Shown here: positions 2,314 through 26,787 of the stretch, one piece after another
Layout of the letters: each line of letters opens with the position of its first letter
Numbering within the stretch: the stretch's first letter is position 1
From: a virus
IMG/VR virus record: IMGVR_UViG_3300020183_000145
Coordinates: 1 to 45,074 of that record
DNA: 45,074 nucleotides
Reading direction: 5' to 3' (one strand)
Program-made: the position numbers and the translations under genes
The notes under the pieces: generated by a model
What the model was told of the DNA's origin: nothing
The model's database searches: none
What the model saw: the letters and a program-made list of their open reading frames with translations, nothing else

Positions 2314-3087
2314 TCATTCCGGTAAACTTCCAAATCTACCTAAAAGATAAGCCTTAGACCAAACTAAATCTTTTCTAACATCTTTAAACTCAGCCAGAGA
2401 GTAAATGTTGTTACTATTTTTTTTGTCAAAAAACCAAACCTCGTCATTTCTAAAAAAATCCTTATCAAGCAGAAGGGGGTCAGAAGTAAAAAATACAACA
2501 TTAGAATGAGAGCTGCTTAGTTCCTTTGACGCGGCTTTCGCATTATTTATTGGATGCCCCGCTAGTCTTACAAAATTTACATGCGGAAAACGCAATCCCA
2601 ACAAAGATGTTGCTAAAAAATCAAAAGCAGATTTCTGATAAGGTAATATTTTTTCAAATAATTTGTTTGCGCTTTCCTCAGGAATATTTTTTAACACGGA
2701 AAACAACTTCTTATTCAAATCTAGTTTCCAATTAGCATAGCTAAAAATTAATTGGGTTTTTGTTTTTAACCCCGTGCCGTGCGCCCATAATTCCTCTAAA
2801 ATTATTTCTCCTTTACGTTTTTTGATTTTGTATTCATAAATCTTCCCTGAATCTAAAAAGGAAAACTCCCAAAGTCCGTTATTATCTAAGTTATTCGCTC
2901 CAATTAGAAAATTCTCAAGCTCATCAACAAATTCTGAATTATCTCCGACGATCAGGGCATATTTCAAAAGCTGAATTGGAACAGAAATATCTACAATGTG
3001 ACCTTTATGTTCCCATGTCTTACTAGCTTTAGTCATTGCGAACTCTGCCTTTAAACCAAGTCTATCAACTTTAAATTCAACTAACAT
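2314..3087 (-). CDS. COG1106/AAA15-type ATPase homologue lacking catalytic motifs (pseudo-ATPase)
   Basis: The N-terminus (MLVEFKV...) and the C-terminal block (NDEVWFFDKK...IYSLAEFKDVRKD...YLLGRFGSLPE) match the ends of COG1106 ABC-type ATPases, the group that includes AbiL-like defence proteins. The expected P-loop after LLKYALI reads GDNSEFVD instead of G-x-N-x-x-G-K-S. The Walker B region reads VNFVRLAGHPI without its D-E pair, and the usual TTH switch is TSD. Length is 257 aa against roughly 370-450 for the family, so the central helical part is also shortened. The frame is intact, so this is a conserved fold with lost catalysis rather than a decayed gene. A dominant-negative or decoy role against a host ATPase defence system is inference. 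The stop of the 53-aa ORF overlaps its start. Confidence 0.75.
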   Translation of the reverse strand: MLVEFKVDRLGLKAEFAMTKASKTWEHKGHIVDISVPIQLLKYALIVGDNSEFVDELENFLIGANNLDNNGLWEFSFLDSGKIYEYKIKKRKGEIILEELWAHGTGLKTKTQLIFSYANWKLDLNKKLFSVLKNIPEESANKLFEKILPYQKSAFDFLATSLLGLRFPHVNFVRLAGHPINNAKAASKELSSSHSNVVFFTSDPLLLDKDFFRNDEVWFFDKKNSNNIYSLAEFKDVRKDLVWSKAYLLGRFGSLPE

Positions 3088-3248
3088 TATGCTTTCCTCT
3101 CTGTTTTAGCCGGAGGATTAAGCGCATACTCAATAGCAAATAGCATCTCCCTCACGTTCTTTTCCTCGCTCATGATAGCTTGCTCCTGGCGGTATTTGGC
3201 CACTTTTATTGCGTGCTCTATTTTTTTAATTGCTTGATCTAGTGTCAT
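3087..3248 (-). CDS. Small hypothetical protein (53 aa)
   Basis: A 53-codon ORF starting MTLDQAIKKIEHAIKVAKY. It is helical and charged and ends with TAA sharing one base with the ATG of the pseudo-ATPase gene. GGAAAGAGTT lies before its ATG. Helical content suggests a small partner protein. Tight coupling makes it a plausible companion of the pseudo-ATPase, but the function is unknown. Confidence 0.65.
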   Translation of the reverse strand: MTLDQAIKKIEHAIKVAKYRQEQAIMSEEKNVREMLFAIEYALNPPAKTERKA

Positions 3249-8821: not shown

Positions 8822-10081
8822 TTATTTTTTAAAAACAACTTGGAATCTTGAGTCTTCTACTCTTCCACGCAGTGATTTCTTTCCCCAATCAGTGATTGGG
8901 TCTTTAAAAACATCGTGCCACTCACCATTTACCTTGATCGCTGAACACTTAAAAGCGAATTTGAGCGTGTCACGGTTTATTTTTTGCATTAAATCACCAC
9001 CCGAACCAAAAGCGAAATTTTGCGCTGAAATCCCATATTTCTCAGTCGCGCTAAGAATTTGGTCGATTGTTTCTGGAGAAATTCCATCGCCCCAGATTAT
9101 TCTGTATTTATCAAATACTTTGTAACCTTTTGAGTTAAAAGAACGAGCCACGCCATTTGCTTCCATAATCTCGATAATTTCTTCGATAATTTTCTCAGGT
9201 TCTCCGCTATCAGGTCTTATCACAAAAATCGGATAGTCTTTACTCTCAATTTTTTCCTTCATAGCGCCGGAAGTTACGAAATTAACCGCTTCAAAAATAT
9301 TGTAAGAATCAAGCACGCAGGCAATAATTGGCGAGTTTTTGTAAGTTTCTAAATAATTCTCAATCATCGCAAACTCGTTTTCGCGACCCCAAGAAGTGAC
9401 TGTTGAGTGTTCTGTGGCTGGAATTGAAAAACCAACAAATTTACCATCATAATACTTCTTAGAAAAAGTAAGCGTATTGAAATTATCAGTTCCTTTGAAT
9501 TGTGTTAAGTGAGCCAATCCACCAAGTGCAGCAGCTTCAACAGAAGTAGAACCTCTATCTCCGAAGTTATGGAAGGCAAAATCAACGCCATCTAAAGAAT
9601 CGGCGGTTTTTTCCCAATGTTTTTCGAGAATTTGACGAGTATGATAAGATTTTGTCGCAACAGTTGTTGGATACCAAACTTTTAGCAATAATGTTTCAAG
9701 ATAACCGACGAGCCAAGCGCAATTTGGATCAGTGTTTTCGATTGTCATTAAAGGCTCTTTGTTGCCAACAATGGAACATTCTGGCAGAGCTTTAATTTCG
9801 ACAGGCAGAAAGCCATCATGAGCTTTTAGAATGTAAAGCCAACCTTCCCTGTTAAAAGGAACGCCGTGTTCTTTTGCTAGCTGTTCGGTCTCGTTGATAT
9901 TCTCAAGCGTGATTGGTTTTTCCAAAAATTCTTTTATGTAGTAAGTTAAGCCAAAAAAAACCACTTTATCATATTCACCGCCACGAGGGGCAAGGTAAGA
10001 ATGGATCATCTCTGTTCCTTTTGGATATTGATTAAAATGGCTGAATTTGTAGCTGTCAGTTAAGTTCAAAATGTTTTTCAT
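8822..10081 (-). CDS. nadV: Nicotinamide phosphoribosyltransferase (NAMPT)
   Basis: Catalyses nicotinamide + PRPP to NMN + PPi, the first step of NAD+ salvage. Family landmarks: DSYKFSHFNQYP (residues 9-20), HNFGDRGSTSVEAA (about 191-204), the catalytic-histidine loop IPATEHS (about 240), RPDSGEP (about 310) and GSGGDLMQK near residue 378. The 419-aa length is slightly short of bacterial NadV and human NAMPT (about 490). It lies 4 bp from the NMN adenylyltransferase, so the two enzymes are made together and complete nicotinamide to NAD+. This pair matches the published phage NAD+ reconstitution pathway 2 (NARP2). Confidence 0.95.
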   Translation of the reverse strand: MKNILNLTDSYKFSHFNQYPKGTEMIHSYLAPRGGEYDKVVFFGLTYYIKEFLEKPITLENINETEQLAKEHGVPFNREGWLYILKAHDGFLPVEIKALPECSIVGNKEPLMTIENTDPNCAWLVGYLETLLLKVWYPTTVATKSYHTRQILEKHWEKTADSLDGVDFAFHNFGDRGSTSVEAAALGGLAHLTQFKGTDNFNTLTFSKKYYDGKFVGFSIPATEHSTVTSWGRENEFAMIENYLETYKNSPIIACVLDSYNIFEAVNFVTSGAMKEKIESKDYPIFVIRPDSGEPEKIIEEIIEIMEANGVARSFNSKGYKVFDKYRIIWGDGISPETIDQILSATEKYGISAQNFAFGSGGDLMQKINRDTLKFAFKCSAIKVNGEWHDVFKDPITDWGKKSLRGRVEDSRFQVVFKK

Positions 10082-10085
10082 ATTT

Positions 10086-10937
10086 TTACTCGATAAAAGT
10101 TAATAAAGGTTTGTGAAAATCGTGTAGTAATTCTTCAAGCTCTTCTTTAGTCGCCCAAACAAAGTCTTTAAATTCTTTGTCTTTAATTTTTTTGTAATTC
10201 ACCTCTTCGTCAGTTTCAAAGTGAATTAAATGCGTCATTATGCAATCTTTCGTTCCTTTGTATCTTTCATCTTCTATTTTCAAACTGCCAACATATCTGA
10301 CTGAATAAAGTTTGGCTATTCCAGTTTCTTCCTCAGCTTCGCGATGTGCTGCAATAAATAAGTTTTCATCAGATGGGTCGATAAAACCACCAATAAAACA
10401 ATATTTATCACCTTTTTTACCAACCAAATATTTATCATCTTTTTCTATTACTACGTCAACAGTTGAATAAACGATCGGATAACGTCTTTCAGTAGCGTAA
10501 ATAATCCCAGCCCTAAAGTCTTGCGAATCTCTTGGGTCTGACATTCCGACCGCTTTTCTTAACGCAGTTGCCGAATGAACACCAATGTCTCGAATAATTT
10601 TCACTTGATGTTTTCCAGAATAATAATTTTCGATTGAGTTGTCTTTACCACCAAAGATTGTTGCTTCACTAAAGCCAAGGTCAGCAATAATTTCGTCAAT
10701 TTGATCTGACCAATCTTTATCTGACAACATGTCGTAAAGAGGCTTTACCTCGCAGTTGTATTTGATTAGTTTTCTTCTTGTTTCAAAATCCATCGGATTT
10801 TTATCTGTTCCAGTTGCTACGGTGCAACCAATTAAAACCAAAAGATTTTCCGAATAATTTCTTGCTTGCCTTAACAATTCCAAATGCCCCTCGTGAAGAT
10901 AAGGCGTCTGGAATCTTCCAATTACTACACTTAACAT
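10086..10937 (-). CDS. nadM: Bifunctional NMN adenylyltransferase / Nudix hydrolase
   Basis: The N-terminal domain (about 1-150) is a nucleotidyltransferase: GRFQTPYLHEGH at residues 7-18 is the ATP-binding (H/T)xGH site. It joins NMN to AMP from ATP to make NAD+. The C-terminal domain (about 155-283) is Nudix. The box REAEEETGI matches REUxEExGU, but there is one extra residue between the first Gly and the first Glu. The fusion resembles bacterial NadM-Nudix proteins. The Nudix half may hydrolyse ADP-ribose, a product of NAD+-cleaving defences (inference). Start ATG has GGAGTAAATT upstream. Confidence 0.93.
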   Translation of the reverse strand: MLSVVIGRFQTPYLHEGHLELLRQARNYSENLLVLIGCTVATGTDKNPMDFETRRKLIKYNCEVKPLYDMLSDKDWSDQIDEIIADLGFSEATIFGGKDNSIENYYSGKHQVKIIRDIGVHSATALRKAVGMSDPRDSQDFRAGIIYATERRYPIVYSTVDVVIEKDDKYLVGKKGDKYCFIGGFIDPSDENLFIAAHREAEEETGIAKLYSVRYVGSLKIEDERYKGTKDCIMTHLIHFETDEEVNYKKIKDKEFKDFVWATKEELEELLHDFHKPLLTFIE

Positions 10938-21490: not shown

Positions 21491-22531
21491 ATGAAAAGAA
21501 AAGGGACTAATAAGCTAAAAAGTATAATTTTAGAGAAAATTTTCCACCTTTACTTTGAAAAAGGTTTGAAATTTGAAACTCTTTGGCTGCAACGTAACGA
21601 GTATAAGGATTTTTGGAGCACATTCTGTTCGATCACTGGTAAATTCACTTTTGAAGATCTCAGTGATCACGGGGTAAAAGAATTAGCTCATAAAATTTTT
21701 ATGAGAAAAACACGCTCGGCCTACACAAGTCCGGTTTTAAGAGCTAGATTGGATGAGTTAAAACTAAAGAGAGAGGCTGGAGAAAATCTATTAGAGCCGG
21801 TTAATCAGATTTTAGTCACGGACACTAAAGAGGAAGTTGTTTTTAACGATGATGGGAGTGAGTTGGTAAGAACAAAAACCCAAGAGGTGCGTAAAATGAA
21901 AATTGAGCGTATTGAGTTTGCTTCTCCAACAACTGTCGATGCCGTAAACATAGCTAACCAGACCCAAAAGGCTACTTCAGAGTTTTTTGAGGACTTGATG
22001 CTTAAAGTTCAAGGTAAACAAACAAAAAAACACCAGTTTATTCACTTGGATATGGCCGCAAAGGTTAAAGAACTCGCCCTAGACATTCTCGATGGAATGG
22101 AGGCTTTGCTAGATGGTTCCGATGCAGAAGAAGCGGCAGCGGTTCAAAAAAAAATGAGTCAAGTAATGCGATTCGCAAAAGTTGCTGATACTGTTAAAAA
22201 AATGGAGATGCAGCCACTTTACACGATGAATTTGATTCACGAGACAGGAGCAAACAGGCAAAAGGAATTGACAGGGGCGATTACCAATGACCGAATGATG
22301 ATTGATTATGGAAATGTCAAAATTGCCCAAGACGAAAAGGTAGTAACCGATACCGCTAGAGTCAGAAATGCGATTAAAGAAAAGGGCTACATAGCCATTG
22401 ATGAGTTACTAATACAAAACCTTCAAAATATTGGGGCTTATTCTGAAGAGCAAACCAAGGAAATAGAAAATAGCGAAGAAATTATTGCTGACGAAGAATT
22501 TGAGGATATCAATGAAGAGCTCACCAAGTAA
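21491..22531 (+). CDS. Putative terminase small subunit / DNA packaging protein (346 aa)
   Basis: It sits directly before the large terminase and overlaps it by 20 bp, the usual place for the small subunit that recognises phage DNA. The protein is charged and helical, with a basic N-terminal region and an acidic C-terminus (EIENSEEIIADEEFEDINEE). At 346 aa it is large for a TerS, so a fused accessory domain or a different packaging role is possible. Assignment is by position only. Confidence 0.5.
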   Translation: MKRKGTNKLKSIILEKIFHLYFEKGLKFETLWLQRNEYKDFWSTFCSITGKFTFEDLSDHGVKELAHKIFMRKTRSAYTSPVLRARLDELKLKREAGENLLEPVNQILVTDTKEEVVFNDDGSELVRTKTQEVRKMKIERIEFASPTTVDAVNIANQTQKATSEFFEDLMLKVQGKQTKKHQFIHLDMAAKVKELALDILDGMEALLDGSDAEEAAAVQKKMSQVMRFAKVADTVKKMEMQPLYTMNLIHETGANRQKELTGAITNDRMMIDYGNVKIAQDEKVVTDTARVRNAIKEKGYIAIDELLIQNLQNIGAYSEEQTKEIENSEEIIADEEFEDINEELTK

Positions 22532-24056
22532 CTCTTTGTCAAGAGCCACAACATACGACTATTGCGCATCCCACTTATTCCCCTTTATGACAATGCTCAA
22601 TGTTGAAGTTGAGCCGCAATATAACTACACAAACAAATTATTTTTGCCGCTTTGCTTGTCGATAAATGATTATTTATCTGACGCGAATCAAAGAACTTAT
22701 CTTTTAGAGGCTCCCCCTAGATCAGGTAAGACCGAATTTCTATTCAGTGTTGTGCTGCCATTTATCATTGGGAATAATCCAGGTAAGAGAATGATGGTAA
22801 TCACCTCAACAAAAGCTACTAGGGAGGCACTAAATAGGCTATTAGAAAGGATATTGAAGAGCGAATTTTACCAAAAGGTATTCCCGTGGATGGGTAAATC
22901 AAAATTTAGCGCAGAAAGATTTGATTTAGGAAACGGATTTTACATTTTATTCACAACCGCGCTTTCAACTGTGCCAACAGGTTCTGGTTTTCACTTTATC
23001 GTTACGTCTGACTACATTTCTGCAAGTTGGATTAACTCGCCGTCAACGATGACAACCGCCTTTTCAAACTGGGAAGGTTTTATGACCAGGAAGCAAAATA
23101 ACCCACCAACGAAGGTAATAATTGATAACCAGCGGTTGGGATTCTATGATTTATCTTGGAAAGTTTTTCAAGGAGCCGAGAGACAGGGAGAAAAAGTTTC
23201 TAGGATAACTTTGCCTTACCAGTTCCAAGATGATTATACCTTGAAACTACCCAAGGGAATTTGTGTCCCTTTCAAAAAAGGAGAATATCTTACCGAGAGA
23301 TTCAATGACAGAGAGAGAAGAAATATTATTGCATCTACTTCGGAAGAGACGTATAGAACGCAGTATTTACAAGACCCCGTCCAGGATAGAGGAAGAATAT
23401 TTAGTAGAGTGTTTTTTAGATTTTATCAAGCCGACACTTTTGAGACGATAAACTTTATTGATGGATTCATCACCACTGACTTAGCGTTTAAAAGAACACT
23501 AAAGTCCGACTTCACCGTTTTTATGTTTTGGATGGTTGATGATCAAGGCAATCTTTATTTAGTTGATATGTTTAGGGAGAAAGTCGACGGCGTTTTGCTC
23601 TACCAATCTCTTTACAACTTTTTCCAAAAATGGCGTTATGGTAGAAATACTTGTGGCTGCTCGACTGTTATTGTTGAAACTGCCGGTGGCTCAAACCAGG
23701 TATTTATCAACACCTTAAGAAACGGTTTCTACACCGAAGAAGGTGGCAAATTGGTTTTTTTGGATTGCCACATTAAGGAATTAGTGAGAAGTGTCAATAA
23801 AGGAGTAAGAGCCAGACAGAGTTTAGGCTACATACAGTCAGGCAAAGTATTTCTTCCGAGCCACGATGTAAAAATTAATGGGGTTTCCGATGTAATAAAT
23901 GATATTGTGGAGCCGTTATTGGGAGAGGCAGAACAATTTTCCGACGATGATAGCCATAAGCATGACGACATGGTGGATTGTCTAGTGGACGCAATCAATC
24001 ATATTAATACCAGAGCCTATGGAGATAGCGAGATCAAAGTTGATACCATAGGTTAG
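22512..24056 (+). CDS. terL: Terminase large subunit
   Basis: The ATP-driven packaging motor and nuclease. Walker A is EAPPRSGKTE (about residues 65-74). The ATPase coupling region includes MVITSTKATREAL. The nuclease domain has ITTDLAF (about 310), VIVETAGGSNQ (about 385) and a C-terminal HKHDDMVDCLVDAI with its acidic metal ligands. Walker B is divergent (FIVTSDYI). The frame begins at 22485, but the ATG at 22512 with GAGG seven bases upstream is preferred (514 aa). Confidence 0.93.
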   Translation: MKSSPSNSLSRATTYDYCASHLFPFMTMLNVEVEPQYNYTNKLFLPLCLSINDYLSDANQRTYLLEAPPRSGKTEFLFSVVLPFIIGNNPGKRMMVITSTKATREALNRLLERILKSEFYQKVFPWMGKSKFSAERFDLGNGFYILFTTALSTVPTGSGFHFIVTSDYISASWINSPSTMTTAFSNWEGFMTRKQNNPPTKVIIDNQRLGFYDLSWKVFQGAERQGEKVSRITLPYQFQDDYTLKLPKGICVPFKKGEYLTERFNDRERRNIIASTSEETYRTQYLQDPVQDRGRIFSRVFFRFYQADTFETINFIDGFITTDLAFKRTLKSDFTVFMFWMVDDQGNLYLVDMFREKVDGVLLYQSLYNFFQKWRYGRNTCGCSTVIVETAGGSNQVFINTLRNGFYTEEGGKLVFLDCHIKELVRSVNKGVRARQSLGYIQSGKVFLPSHDVKINGVSDVINDIVEPLLGEAEQFSDDDSHKHDDMVDCLVDAINHINTRAYGDSEIKVDTIG

Positions 24057-24173: not shown

Positions 24174-25511
24174 TTAAGAAATATTTGGAGCTGGCTTTGT
24201 TTTATTGCCGGACAACTCCGCATTAACAATATCAAGTCCGGCTTTAGTTCCAAATTGCTTAAATTCAGGGGCTACCTGAGAAATCATTTTCCTCAACTCG
24301 TTAATTGTGTAAAGGTTATTTTGATTTAATTGAATTGCTAACTGCAAGAACGCTTCCTGAAATATCCTAATTCCAGCCGTGTCCAAACTAAGGTAATAGT
24401 CATTTACGTTTATTCCGCTATCAATGTTAGAAATGATGCTGCGCATAGCCTTGGTCATTGGCTTCAAGCACATGTAGTTGAAGGTTCTAAATGTCGCATC
24501 ATACAAACTTTTTAAGCGGACGATGGTATTGTTAGAATATTCGTCTATTCCCATGAATACAGAATAAGAACCTTGATCAACGTAAGAAAATATTTTTTCT
24601 GCAGCTAATTTATCGAAATTTACTACCTCAGAAGAGTTCGCCGCAATATTAAGTGCTTTAATGTCAATACTAATGTTGGGGCTAGAGGCCATGATAGTTC
24701 CGCCACTCGATCCCTTTCCTGACTTCATTTGATTTTTAATGTCTTCGACAGCTTTAGTAAAATCTTCCCTTTCTTTCGCGGTCATTGGCATCCCCTGGAC
24801 AGTGTTATATGAAACTGTGACAATCTGGGATGGAAAACACGAATTAGCATAAAACGAAGTAGCAAATTTTGCTACAAGATTCTGTAGTTTGATGTAATTA
24901 ATCGCTGGAGAAAATTCTGATTTATATGTGGCAGAAAGGTTGCTGTAGTTGCCATCTACTTGCAACAAATAAACCTCGTTACCTTGCTCATAAGAAAACA
25001 TTCCGTATCTAGTAGATAAATTGAATGTCATCGTATTAGATTGGTAGCTTACTTGATATTGCGTATTTGAGATATTATTTATCAATCCTATCGACTGAGG
25101 CAGTATAATCCTCTTGAAATTCATTTTCCTATCAAACACAAAAATCACGCCATAAATACCATCTACATTTTGTGCTTGGAGTAGGTATTTTAAGATATGA
25201 TCTTTATTGTTTGGGCTTGGATATGTGTTTGGGTTGTAGATCCAATCCAAAAAATCATTAAAAACCTTCTCGTTTACAACTACGTCGCCTCCAGCAGCTT
25301 TCTTTTTAACCACAAAATCTGGTTGGCTTATGATGGCAAATTGTTTGTTAATGATCGTTTGGGTGCTGATATTATCTAAAATATGAGAGCGATCGCAGCC
25401 AGAAAATTGTCCTATCAAGTTTCCTGAGATATCAAACACCATGGTCTCAGACATGTTGCTTATCGAAGCCACTGATTTGGTTTCCAGTTTTTTCTTAGAA
25501 AAAAGTTTCAC
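24174..25511 (-). CDS. Portal protein, encoded on the opposite strand
   Basis: Forms the dodecameric channel at the capsid vertex through which DNA is packaged. The 445-aa length, the position between terL and the protease, and blocks such as FMGIDEYSNNTIVRLKSLYD and a C-terminal ELRKMISQVAPEF support portal. It starts at GTG (25509-25511) without a visible ribosome binding site. All other head genes are on the plus strand, so the portal must have its own promoter or be inverted relative to the ancestor. Confidence 0.75.
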   Translation of the reverse strand: MKLFSKKKLETKSVASISNMSETMVFDISGNLIGQFSGCDRSHILDNISTQTIINKQFAIISQPDFVVKKKAAGGDVVVNEKVFNDFLDWIYNPNTYPSPNNKDHILKYLLQAQNVDGIYGVIFVFDRKMNFKRIILPQSIGLINNISNTQYQVSYQSNTMTFNLSTRYGMFSYEQGNEVYLLQVDGNYSNLSATYKSEFSPAINYIKLQNLVAKFATSFYANSCFPSQIVTVSYNTVQGMPMTAKEREDFTKAVEDIKNQMKSGKGSSGGTIMASSPNISIDIKALNIAANSSEVVNFDKLAAEKIFSYVDQGSYSVFMGIDEYSNNTIVRLKSLYDATFRTFNYMCLKPMTKAMRSIISNIDSGINVNDYYLSLDTAGIRIFQEAFLQLAIQLNQNNLYTINELRKMISQVAPEFKQFGTKAGLDIVNAELSGNKTKPAPNIS

Positions 25512-25614: not shown

Positions 25615-26787
25615 ATGCACAAAATAATTGAATTTAAGTCGGCAGAGTTTGCTGTAAATAGCTTCGATGAGATCAAAGGTATTTTTACAGGATATGCTTC
25701 AGCCTTCAATAAAATTGACAAGGTAAATGATACTGTAGCTTATGGAGCCTTTGATTACTCGATTAATCAATGGAAGGAAGGAAAAGCTATTAGCGTTAAT
25801 TTTGAACATGACAAAAAAATTGAACTCGCCCCTAATTTAATCGAGTTTTTCGCAGATCAATACGGAGCTTTAGTCAGATTCCAATTTTCAGAAGAAGCAA
25901 AAAATAACTATCCAGACATTTACCGGTGGGCTGTCTCGAAAGCTAAAAATAACACGCTATTTATGTCTATTGGCTATACCTTTATCAGATCAGCCTTAGG
26001 AGACAAAAGATATACTCTAAAAAAGAAATTTGCCGAACCAGACACGATCTACAATCTATCTTTAAACCACGTCGCCATTACAGGCGATCCAGTCGATCCA
26101 TCGGCTAGAATGTTGGAGGTTAAGGGCTTCAAGATGCCGAAATTCCCAATTCATCTATCAGAAACTTGGGATGAACAAGAAGCAATGAAAAACTGGAGAG
26201 AATTTTCTAAATCTAAGGATAGCCCATCTGATTCTTACAAAAACGGATTTCTTTATTTCGAGGATGGAAAAGAAGATTTGTTTGCAGCCTACCACTTTAA
26301 TTTAGTAGATATTATCGATGGTGAGCCAATGATTAATTCAGCGGCCGTAGTAACTGCTCATCGCTATATAAAAGGCGCGAGAAACGGCGTTAAAATCCTA
26401 AATGCCGAGCAAAAAATCACTGCCCTAGACATCATCTCTAAACTTTACACCAAAATTAATAGATTGCGCAAGGAAGAGGGGCTAAAGCCACTTCCAGAAG
26501 TCGAGGTAAAAGCTGATATTAACTTCAACGAGTTAATCGAAACCATTGACGGCGAAGTAAGTGCAAAAAGGTTCCTTAAGAGCAACCAAGGATCATTATC
26601 AAATACCAATATCGAGAATTTCATTAACAAGGTTATTTCGGTTACCAAAAATGAAGTTAAATCTCAAAAAGAATTAGAGGTTGGCGATTGGACCTCTGTG
26701 ACTCAACCAACCTCTGTGTCTGAGGTTAAAACAAACGAACTATCTGACTACTTTAGTGAGGTAGGTAAATTTTTAACCAAAAAATAA
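25615..26787 (+). CDS. HK97-type prohead protease with a long C-terminal extension (390 aa)
   Basis: Residues 1-170 are the prohead serine protease: GIFTGYASAFNKIDKVNDTV, NFEHDKK (catalytic His), FMSIGYTF (catalytic Ser) and LNHVAITGDPVDPSARM. A second block (about 175-290, with ETWDEQEAMKNWREF and YHFNLVDIIDGEPM) resembles a domain found in other phage head-maturation proteins. The remainder is polar and helical, as in scaffolds. The fusion likely couples scaffolding to proteolysis. No Shine-Dalgarno sequence is visible. Confidence 0.88.
   Translation: MHKIIEFKSAEFAVNSFDEIKGIFTGYASAFNKIDKVNDTVAYGAFDYSINQWKEGKAISVNFEHDKKIELAPNLIEFFADQYGALVRFQFSEEAKNNYPDIYRWAVSKAKNNTLFMSIGYTFIRSALGDKRYTLKKKFAEPDTIYNLSLNHVAITGDPVDPSARMLEVKGFKMPKFPIHLSETWDEQEAMKNWREFSKSKDSPSDSYKNGFLYFEDGKEDLFAAYHFNLVDIIDGEPMINSAAVVTAHRYIKGARNGVKILNAEQKITALDIISKLYTKINRLRKEEGLKPLPEVEVKADINFNELIETIDGEVSAKRFLKSNQGSLSNTNIENFINKVISVTKNEVKSQKELEVGDWTSVTQPTSVSEVKTNELSDYFSEVGKFLTKK

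What the first reader, a model, noticed from the sequence alone, without database searches (positions are those of the whole stretch)
2314..3087. Phage-encoded catalytically dead COG1106 ATPase: possible dominant-negative anti-defence protein
The protein keeps the N-terminal strand and C-terminal GRFG..P end of COG1106/AbiL-like ATPases. However, the P-loop reads GDNSEFVD, the Walker B acidic pair is gone, the TTH switch is TSD, and about a third of the family length is missing. The frame is intact, so selection keeps a fold without catalysis. A phage copy of a defence-type ATPase that cannot hydrolyse ATP could poison host complexes or act as a decoy sensor.
Basis: partly seen in the sequence, partly recalled or inferred. 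Interest (0 to 1): 0.75.

Follow-up and report, generated by a model that had tools for sequence, protein, structure and literature searches.

The report
Phage-borne dead AbiL-type defence ATPase
A phage of an unknown host carries a shortened copy of a bacterial anti-phage ATPase (AbiLi) that has lost every catalytic motif and its toxic partner gene but keeps an open frame and the family's C-terminal end, so it may block the host's own version of that defence, although this is untested.

Summary
Window 2314-3087(-) encodes a 257-aa protein that is a true, colinear relative of the abortive-infection ATPase AbiLi (PADLOC AbiLi E=2.7e-19; own family profile E=3.4e-32, three colinear blocks). Walker A (K to V, S/T to D), Walker B (D to N, E to F), the ESxGT signature and the switch histidine (to S) are all lost. 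About 40% of the family length, the helical arm around the signature, is deleted. The C-terminal RRDxxWF...GRxGxxP module is nearly intact. The gene is translationally coupled in an operon, has a Shine-Dalgarno sequence and phage-like codon use. No RloB/AbiLii effector was detected in the window; 55 of 59 viral AbiLi genes with room downstream have one. All 119 retrieved viral loci (72 contigs) with AbiLi-type genes keep both Walker motifs; this copy is the only exception found, and it has no close relative, so dN/dS could not be measured. AbiLi-type ATPases act as antitoxins of their nuclease partners, and phage antitoxin mimics are known. The best-supported mechanism is interference with a host AbiL-type system, by capturing the effector or co-assembling with the ATPase. 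That step is inferred. Function outside defence, and slow decay, remain live rivals.

The parts
2314..3087 (-). dead AbiLi-family protein, 257 aa (P0001)
3096..3102 (-). Shine-Dalgarno-like AGAGAGG upstream of the ATG
3085..3089 (-). TAATG: stop of the upstream 53-aa gene (3087-3248) overlaps the start codon, translational coupling
   Evidence: sequence
2923..2946 (-). degenerate Walker A, residues 48-55 GDNSEFVD (family GANASGKS)
2593..2607 (-). degenerate signature, residues 161-165 SLLGL (family ESxGT)
2572..2577 (-). degenerate Walker B acidic pair, residues 171-172 NF (family DE), a few residues before the retained HP
2479..2490 (-). degenerate switch, residues 200-203 FTSD (family TTHD)
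2320..2451 (-). retained family C-terminal module, residues 213-256 (R.DEVWF ... R ... YLLGRFG..P)
   Evidence: 12 of 15 conserved columns kept

Best explanation
The gene descends from a full-length AbiLi-type defence ATPase (the sensor/antitoxin half of an AbiL-like pair). It lost the nuclease partner gene, the ATP site and the helical arm, but kept the two-lobed core fold and the C-terminal module. Most likely it is made in the replication-gene operon during infection and interferes with a host AbiL-type system, either by binding the RloB-type (or HEPN-type) effector as an antitoxin that ATP cannot make let go, or by co-assembling with the host ATPase. Shown here: homology, motif loss, missing partner, operon position, open frame. 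Inferred: expression, binding, anti-defence effect.
For: AbiLi homology over the whole length. All catalytic motifs lost while the C-terminal module is kept. No RloB hit in the window at E<=1, while 55 of 59 viral and 65 of 75 bacterial AbiLi loci with room have one. Coupled start, SD, codon score 0.255 inside the phage gene range 0.13-0.40, P(open by chance) about 2e-8. Incomplete copies elsewhere look different: they are short or split ORFs, several of them cut by contig ends, and they keep the motifs they still span. AAA antitoxins of this group neutralise TOPRIM_OLD/RloB-type toxins in toxicity assays (PMC10440598). AriA of PARIS holds AriB inactive (PMC12409363, PMC11455837). Phage ICP1 AdfB is a reported antitoxin mimic (PMC11481870). 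The phage also carries a NAD-salvage gene pair of a kind that could counter NAD-depleting defences.
Against: No experiment and no close homologue, so no dN/dS. Terminal branch 2.15 against a family median 0.36 and maximum 0.95, so effector-binding surfaces may have changed too. The kept C-terminal module is shared by RloB-paired and HEPN-paired family members, so it is not shown to be the effector-binding part. Host unknown, so no evidence that it meets AbiL. The surrounding genes are DNA replication and recombination genes.
Confidence: 0.45

Rival explanations
1. Exapted pseudo-ATPase: the fold was recruited for a phage job unrelated to AbiL, for example a structural or regulatory factor in replication or recombination.
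For: It sits among SSB, phosphoesterase and RusA-like genes, with RecT, YqaJ, NinB-like and DnaB genes further upstream; very long branch; fold search finds Rad50-type heads; no AbiL link beyond descent.
Against: No homologue in the related phage contigs searched, so it is probably not a core replication gene; the AbiLi-specific C-terminus is kept best.
Confidence: 0.27
2. Dying remnant: a defence pair once carried by the phage lost its effector and the ATPase is drifting, caught before a stop codon arises.
For: Effector gene missing; catalytic site lost; intact AbiLi-RloB pairs do travel on phages (Klebsiella phage ST13-OXA48phi12.1).
Against: About 2 substitutions per site with no stop or frameshift; coupled start and SD; normal codon use; retained invariant C-terminal residues. 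A drifting gene should not keep these.
Confidence: 0.15
3. Decoy sensor: it binds the phage trigger that host AbiLi senses and so hides it.
For: AriA, the PARIS analogue, senses phage proteins directly (PMC12409363); the core fold is kept.
Against: Trigger and sensing surface of AbiLi are unknown; the arm, a plausible sensing part, is deleted.
Confidence: 0.08
4. Artefact of assembly or a chance ORF.
For: Single virus contig of unknown source, no second copy seen.
Against: Colinear homology E=3.4e-32; changes are scattered in-frame substitutions and deletions, not a junction; P(open) about 2e-8.
Confidence: 0.02

Closest known systems
AbiLi (AbiL abortive infection system; PADLOC PDLC02335; intact members carry Pfam AAA_21 PF13304)
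   Same: Colinear homology, N-terminal and C-terminal ends, predicted two-lobed ABC-type core
   Different: No Walker A, Walker B, signature or switch His; 257 instead of 420-460 aa; no RloB/AbiLii next to it; P0001 itself does not reach PF13304
AriA of PARIS
   Same: ABC-type ATPase that holds a TOPRIM nuclease inactive; intact AbiLi relatives match AriA models
   Different: P0001 does not match AriA models; no AriB; no ATP site
PtuA (Septu, retron I-A)
   Same: Among the closest solved structures of intact AbiLi relatives, besides Rad50/SMC
   Different: Partner is an HNH nuclease; P0001 has no detectable sequence match
AdfB of Vibrio phage ICP1 (anti-DarT antitoxin mimic, PMC11481870)
   Same: Phage-coded protein that takes the antitoxin's place against a defence toxin
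   Different: Shown by experiment; unrelated family; here only inferred

Membership tests
AbiLi | Family profile match | tested here: met
   E=2.7e-19 PADLOC; E=3.4e-32 own HMM
AbiLi | Walker A GxNxxGK[ST] | tested here: not met
   GDNSEFVD; 119 of 119 viral loci have it
AbiLi | Walker B hhhDE and signature ESxGT | tested here: not met
   NF and SLLGL
AbiLi | C-terminal RRDxxWF...GRxGxxP module | tested here: met
   12 of 15 conserved columns
AbiLi | Adjacent AbiLii/RloB effector gene | tested here: not met
   no RloB profile hit in window
AbiLi | ATPase activity and abortive infection | not testable with these tools
   motif loss predicts none
PARIS AriA | AriA profile match and AriB partner | tested here: not met
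   no AriA hit for P0001
Septu PtuA | PtuA profile match and PtuB HNH partner next to it | tested here: not met
   no PtuA hit; neighbours are a 102-aa unknown gene and a 53-aa ORF
Phage antitoxin mimic (AdfB-like mode) | Neutralises a defence toxin by binding | not testable with these tools
   needs toxicity-neutralisation assay

The most novel reading that the evidence does not exclude
A phage has turned an acquired AbiLi-type antitoxin/sensor ATPase into a permanently locked, ATP-independent antitoxin: a counter-defence protein against AbiL-type (TOPRIM or HEPN) systems, and a general route by which defence ATPases become their own inhibitors.
Probability: 0.33. Interest if true: 0.75.

Novelty: new variant of a known kind. 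Interest (0 to 1): 0.52.

Why it matters
I found no described phage inhibitor of AbiL-type systems in the papers searched, though the library is open-access only. A lone, dead, trimmed AbiLi in a phage would show which part of these ATPases holds the toxin and whether ATP is needed only for release. It also gives a search rule: orphan, motif-less copies of defence ATPases in phages as candidate counter-defence genes.

Tried and rejected
Close relatives by single-protein scans of viral and genome contigs: none. Profile and C-terminus-only scans for a second dead copy: only intact copies; the patterns need R[RN]D[QE].W[FI] or the P-loop region, so copies that changed both would be missed. Related phage contigs by terminase, RecT, capsid and phosphoesterase: few and distant, none with the gene; the best phosphoesterase relative L217 (84%) has other small genes upstream. 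Relatives of the downstream 102-aa gene: two contigs, no AbiLi-like ORF. Placing the ancestor on a tree: support 0.77 near a small group, not trusted because of the long branch. Pfam, NCBIfam and PDB sequence searches with P0001: nothing meaningful. Main PARIS structure papers are not held.

Full report
The gene. Window 2314-3087 on the minus strand is an open frame of 257 codons. Its ATG overlaps the stop of a 53-aa upstream gene (TAATG) behind an AGAGAGG Shine-Dalgarno-like site. Codon score 0.255 lies inside the range of 24 other genes of the phage (0.13-0.40), and a frame of this length has a chance near 2e-8 of being open at the window's composition. It lies downstream of an SSB gene and upstream of a 102-aa unknown gene, a phosphoesterase and a RusA-like gene.

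Homology. Pfam, NCBIfam and PDB sequence searches find nothing meaningful; PADLOC gives AbiLi at 2.7e-19. tblastn finds mainly the last 70-100 residues, in AbiLi-type ATP-binding proteins; the annotated ones I opened are followed by RloB genes or by an unnamed gene in the same place. I collected 68 viral and 80 bacterial or archaeal loci by profile and 51 further viral loci, mostly of the same contigs, by the C-terminus alone. A profile of 97 relatives built without the window finds three colinear blocks in P0001 covering both ends of the protein (E 3.4e-32). Descent from a full-length AbiLi is therefore well supported.

What is lost. In register, Walker A GANASGKS reads GDNSEFVD, the Walker B DE reads NF, ESxGT reads SLLGL and TTHD reads FTSD. 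None of nine invariant catalytic columns is kept, against 33 of 58 other conserved columns (p=0.002; seven motif columns placed by ungapped hand alignment because MAFFT opened gaps there). Model secondary structure shows the same: compared with an intact relative (L088, pLDDT 93), P0001 (pLDDT 80.8, pTM 0.79) keeps the first lobe with its helix, the beta sheet, the second lobe and the C-terminal strands and helix, while the 146-310 stretch of L088 (arm, signature helix) shrinks to three short helices, the last of low confidence. The fold search gives Rad50 heads first (E 5.9e-4, TM 0.41); the alignment used was of intact ATPases, so this is not independent proof of fold.

How unusual. All 119 viral loci (72 distinct contigs by name) with AbiLi-type genes keep Walker A and Walker B. 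The six bacterial loci without Walker A are short ORFs: L146, L158, L163 and L152 start at or near a contig end, while L143 and L091 are internal truncations; all still carry later motifs that they span. The split phage copy L005 keeps Walker A in one half and Walker B in the other. An open frame with every motif gone was seen only in the window. Its terminal branch, 2.15 substitutions per site, is more than twice the next longest.

The partner. RloB lies near 55 of 59 viral and 65 of 75 bacterial AbiLi genes with room for it; the window has none. A side branch (L018, L055, L096, L098, L115) has a RiboL-PSP-HEPN-like gene in that place (Pfam run on L018, L055 and L098, the other two by likeness). 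Both groups share the C-terminal module that P0001 keeps, so the module is probably general to these ATPases (assembly or effector docking) and not proof of RloB binding.

Mechanism. AAA proteins of this group are antitoxins: co-expression neutralises TOPRIM_OLD/RloB-type toxins (PMC10440598), and AriA of PARIS holds AriB until a phage protein is sensed (PMC12409363, PMC11455837). A copy without effector, ATP site or arm cannot run such a defence itself. It could still hold an effector without being told to let go, or join and stall the host ATPase. Phage ICP1 does the former against DarT with the unrelated AdfB (PMC11481870). I give this interference reading 0.45, with effector capture somewhat ahead of co-assembly. 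Exaptation for another phage function (0.27) and slow decay (0.15) remain.

Limits. No close homologue, no host, no dN/dS, no complex model. The related phage contigs found are distant and short, and the gene is absent from them, which fits an accessory gene but proves little.

Noticed in passing
window 24174-25511 (-): A portal-like gene (Pfam Phage_portal E=4.6e-5) lies on the minus strand between plus-strand terminase (22485-24056) and prohead protease (25615-26787), an odd inversion inside the head module.
   Followed up: no
window 8822-10937 (-): Nicotinamide phosphoribosyltransferase next to a cytidylyltransferase-NUDIX fusion: a NAD-salvage pair that may counter NAD-depleting defences.
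   Followed up: partly
L018 5253-5954, L055 5248-5940, L098 5237-5959, L096 1358-2065, L115 5268-5972: AbiLi-type ATPases paired with a RiboL-PSP-HEPN-like gene instead of RloB, two of them on viral contigs; the one HEPN protein tested (L018) matches no PADLOC model, so this looks like an unlisted AbiL variant.
   Followed up: partly
L217 1175-1675: Phosphoesterase 84% identical to the window's, in a contig with different small genes in the upstream slot.
   Followed up: partly
L005 2031-3234: A phage-fragment AbiLi gene split into two frames, with its motifs still intact and no RloB-like gene directly behind it.
   Followed up: no
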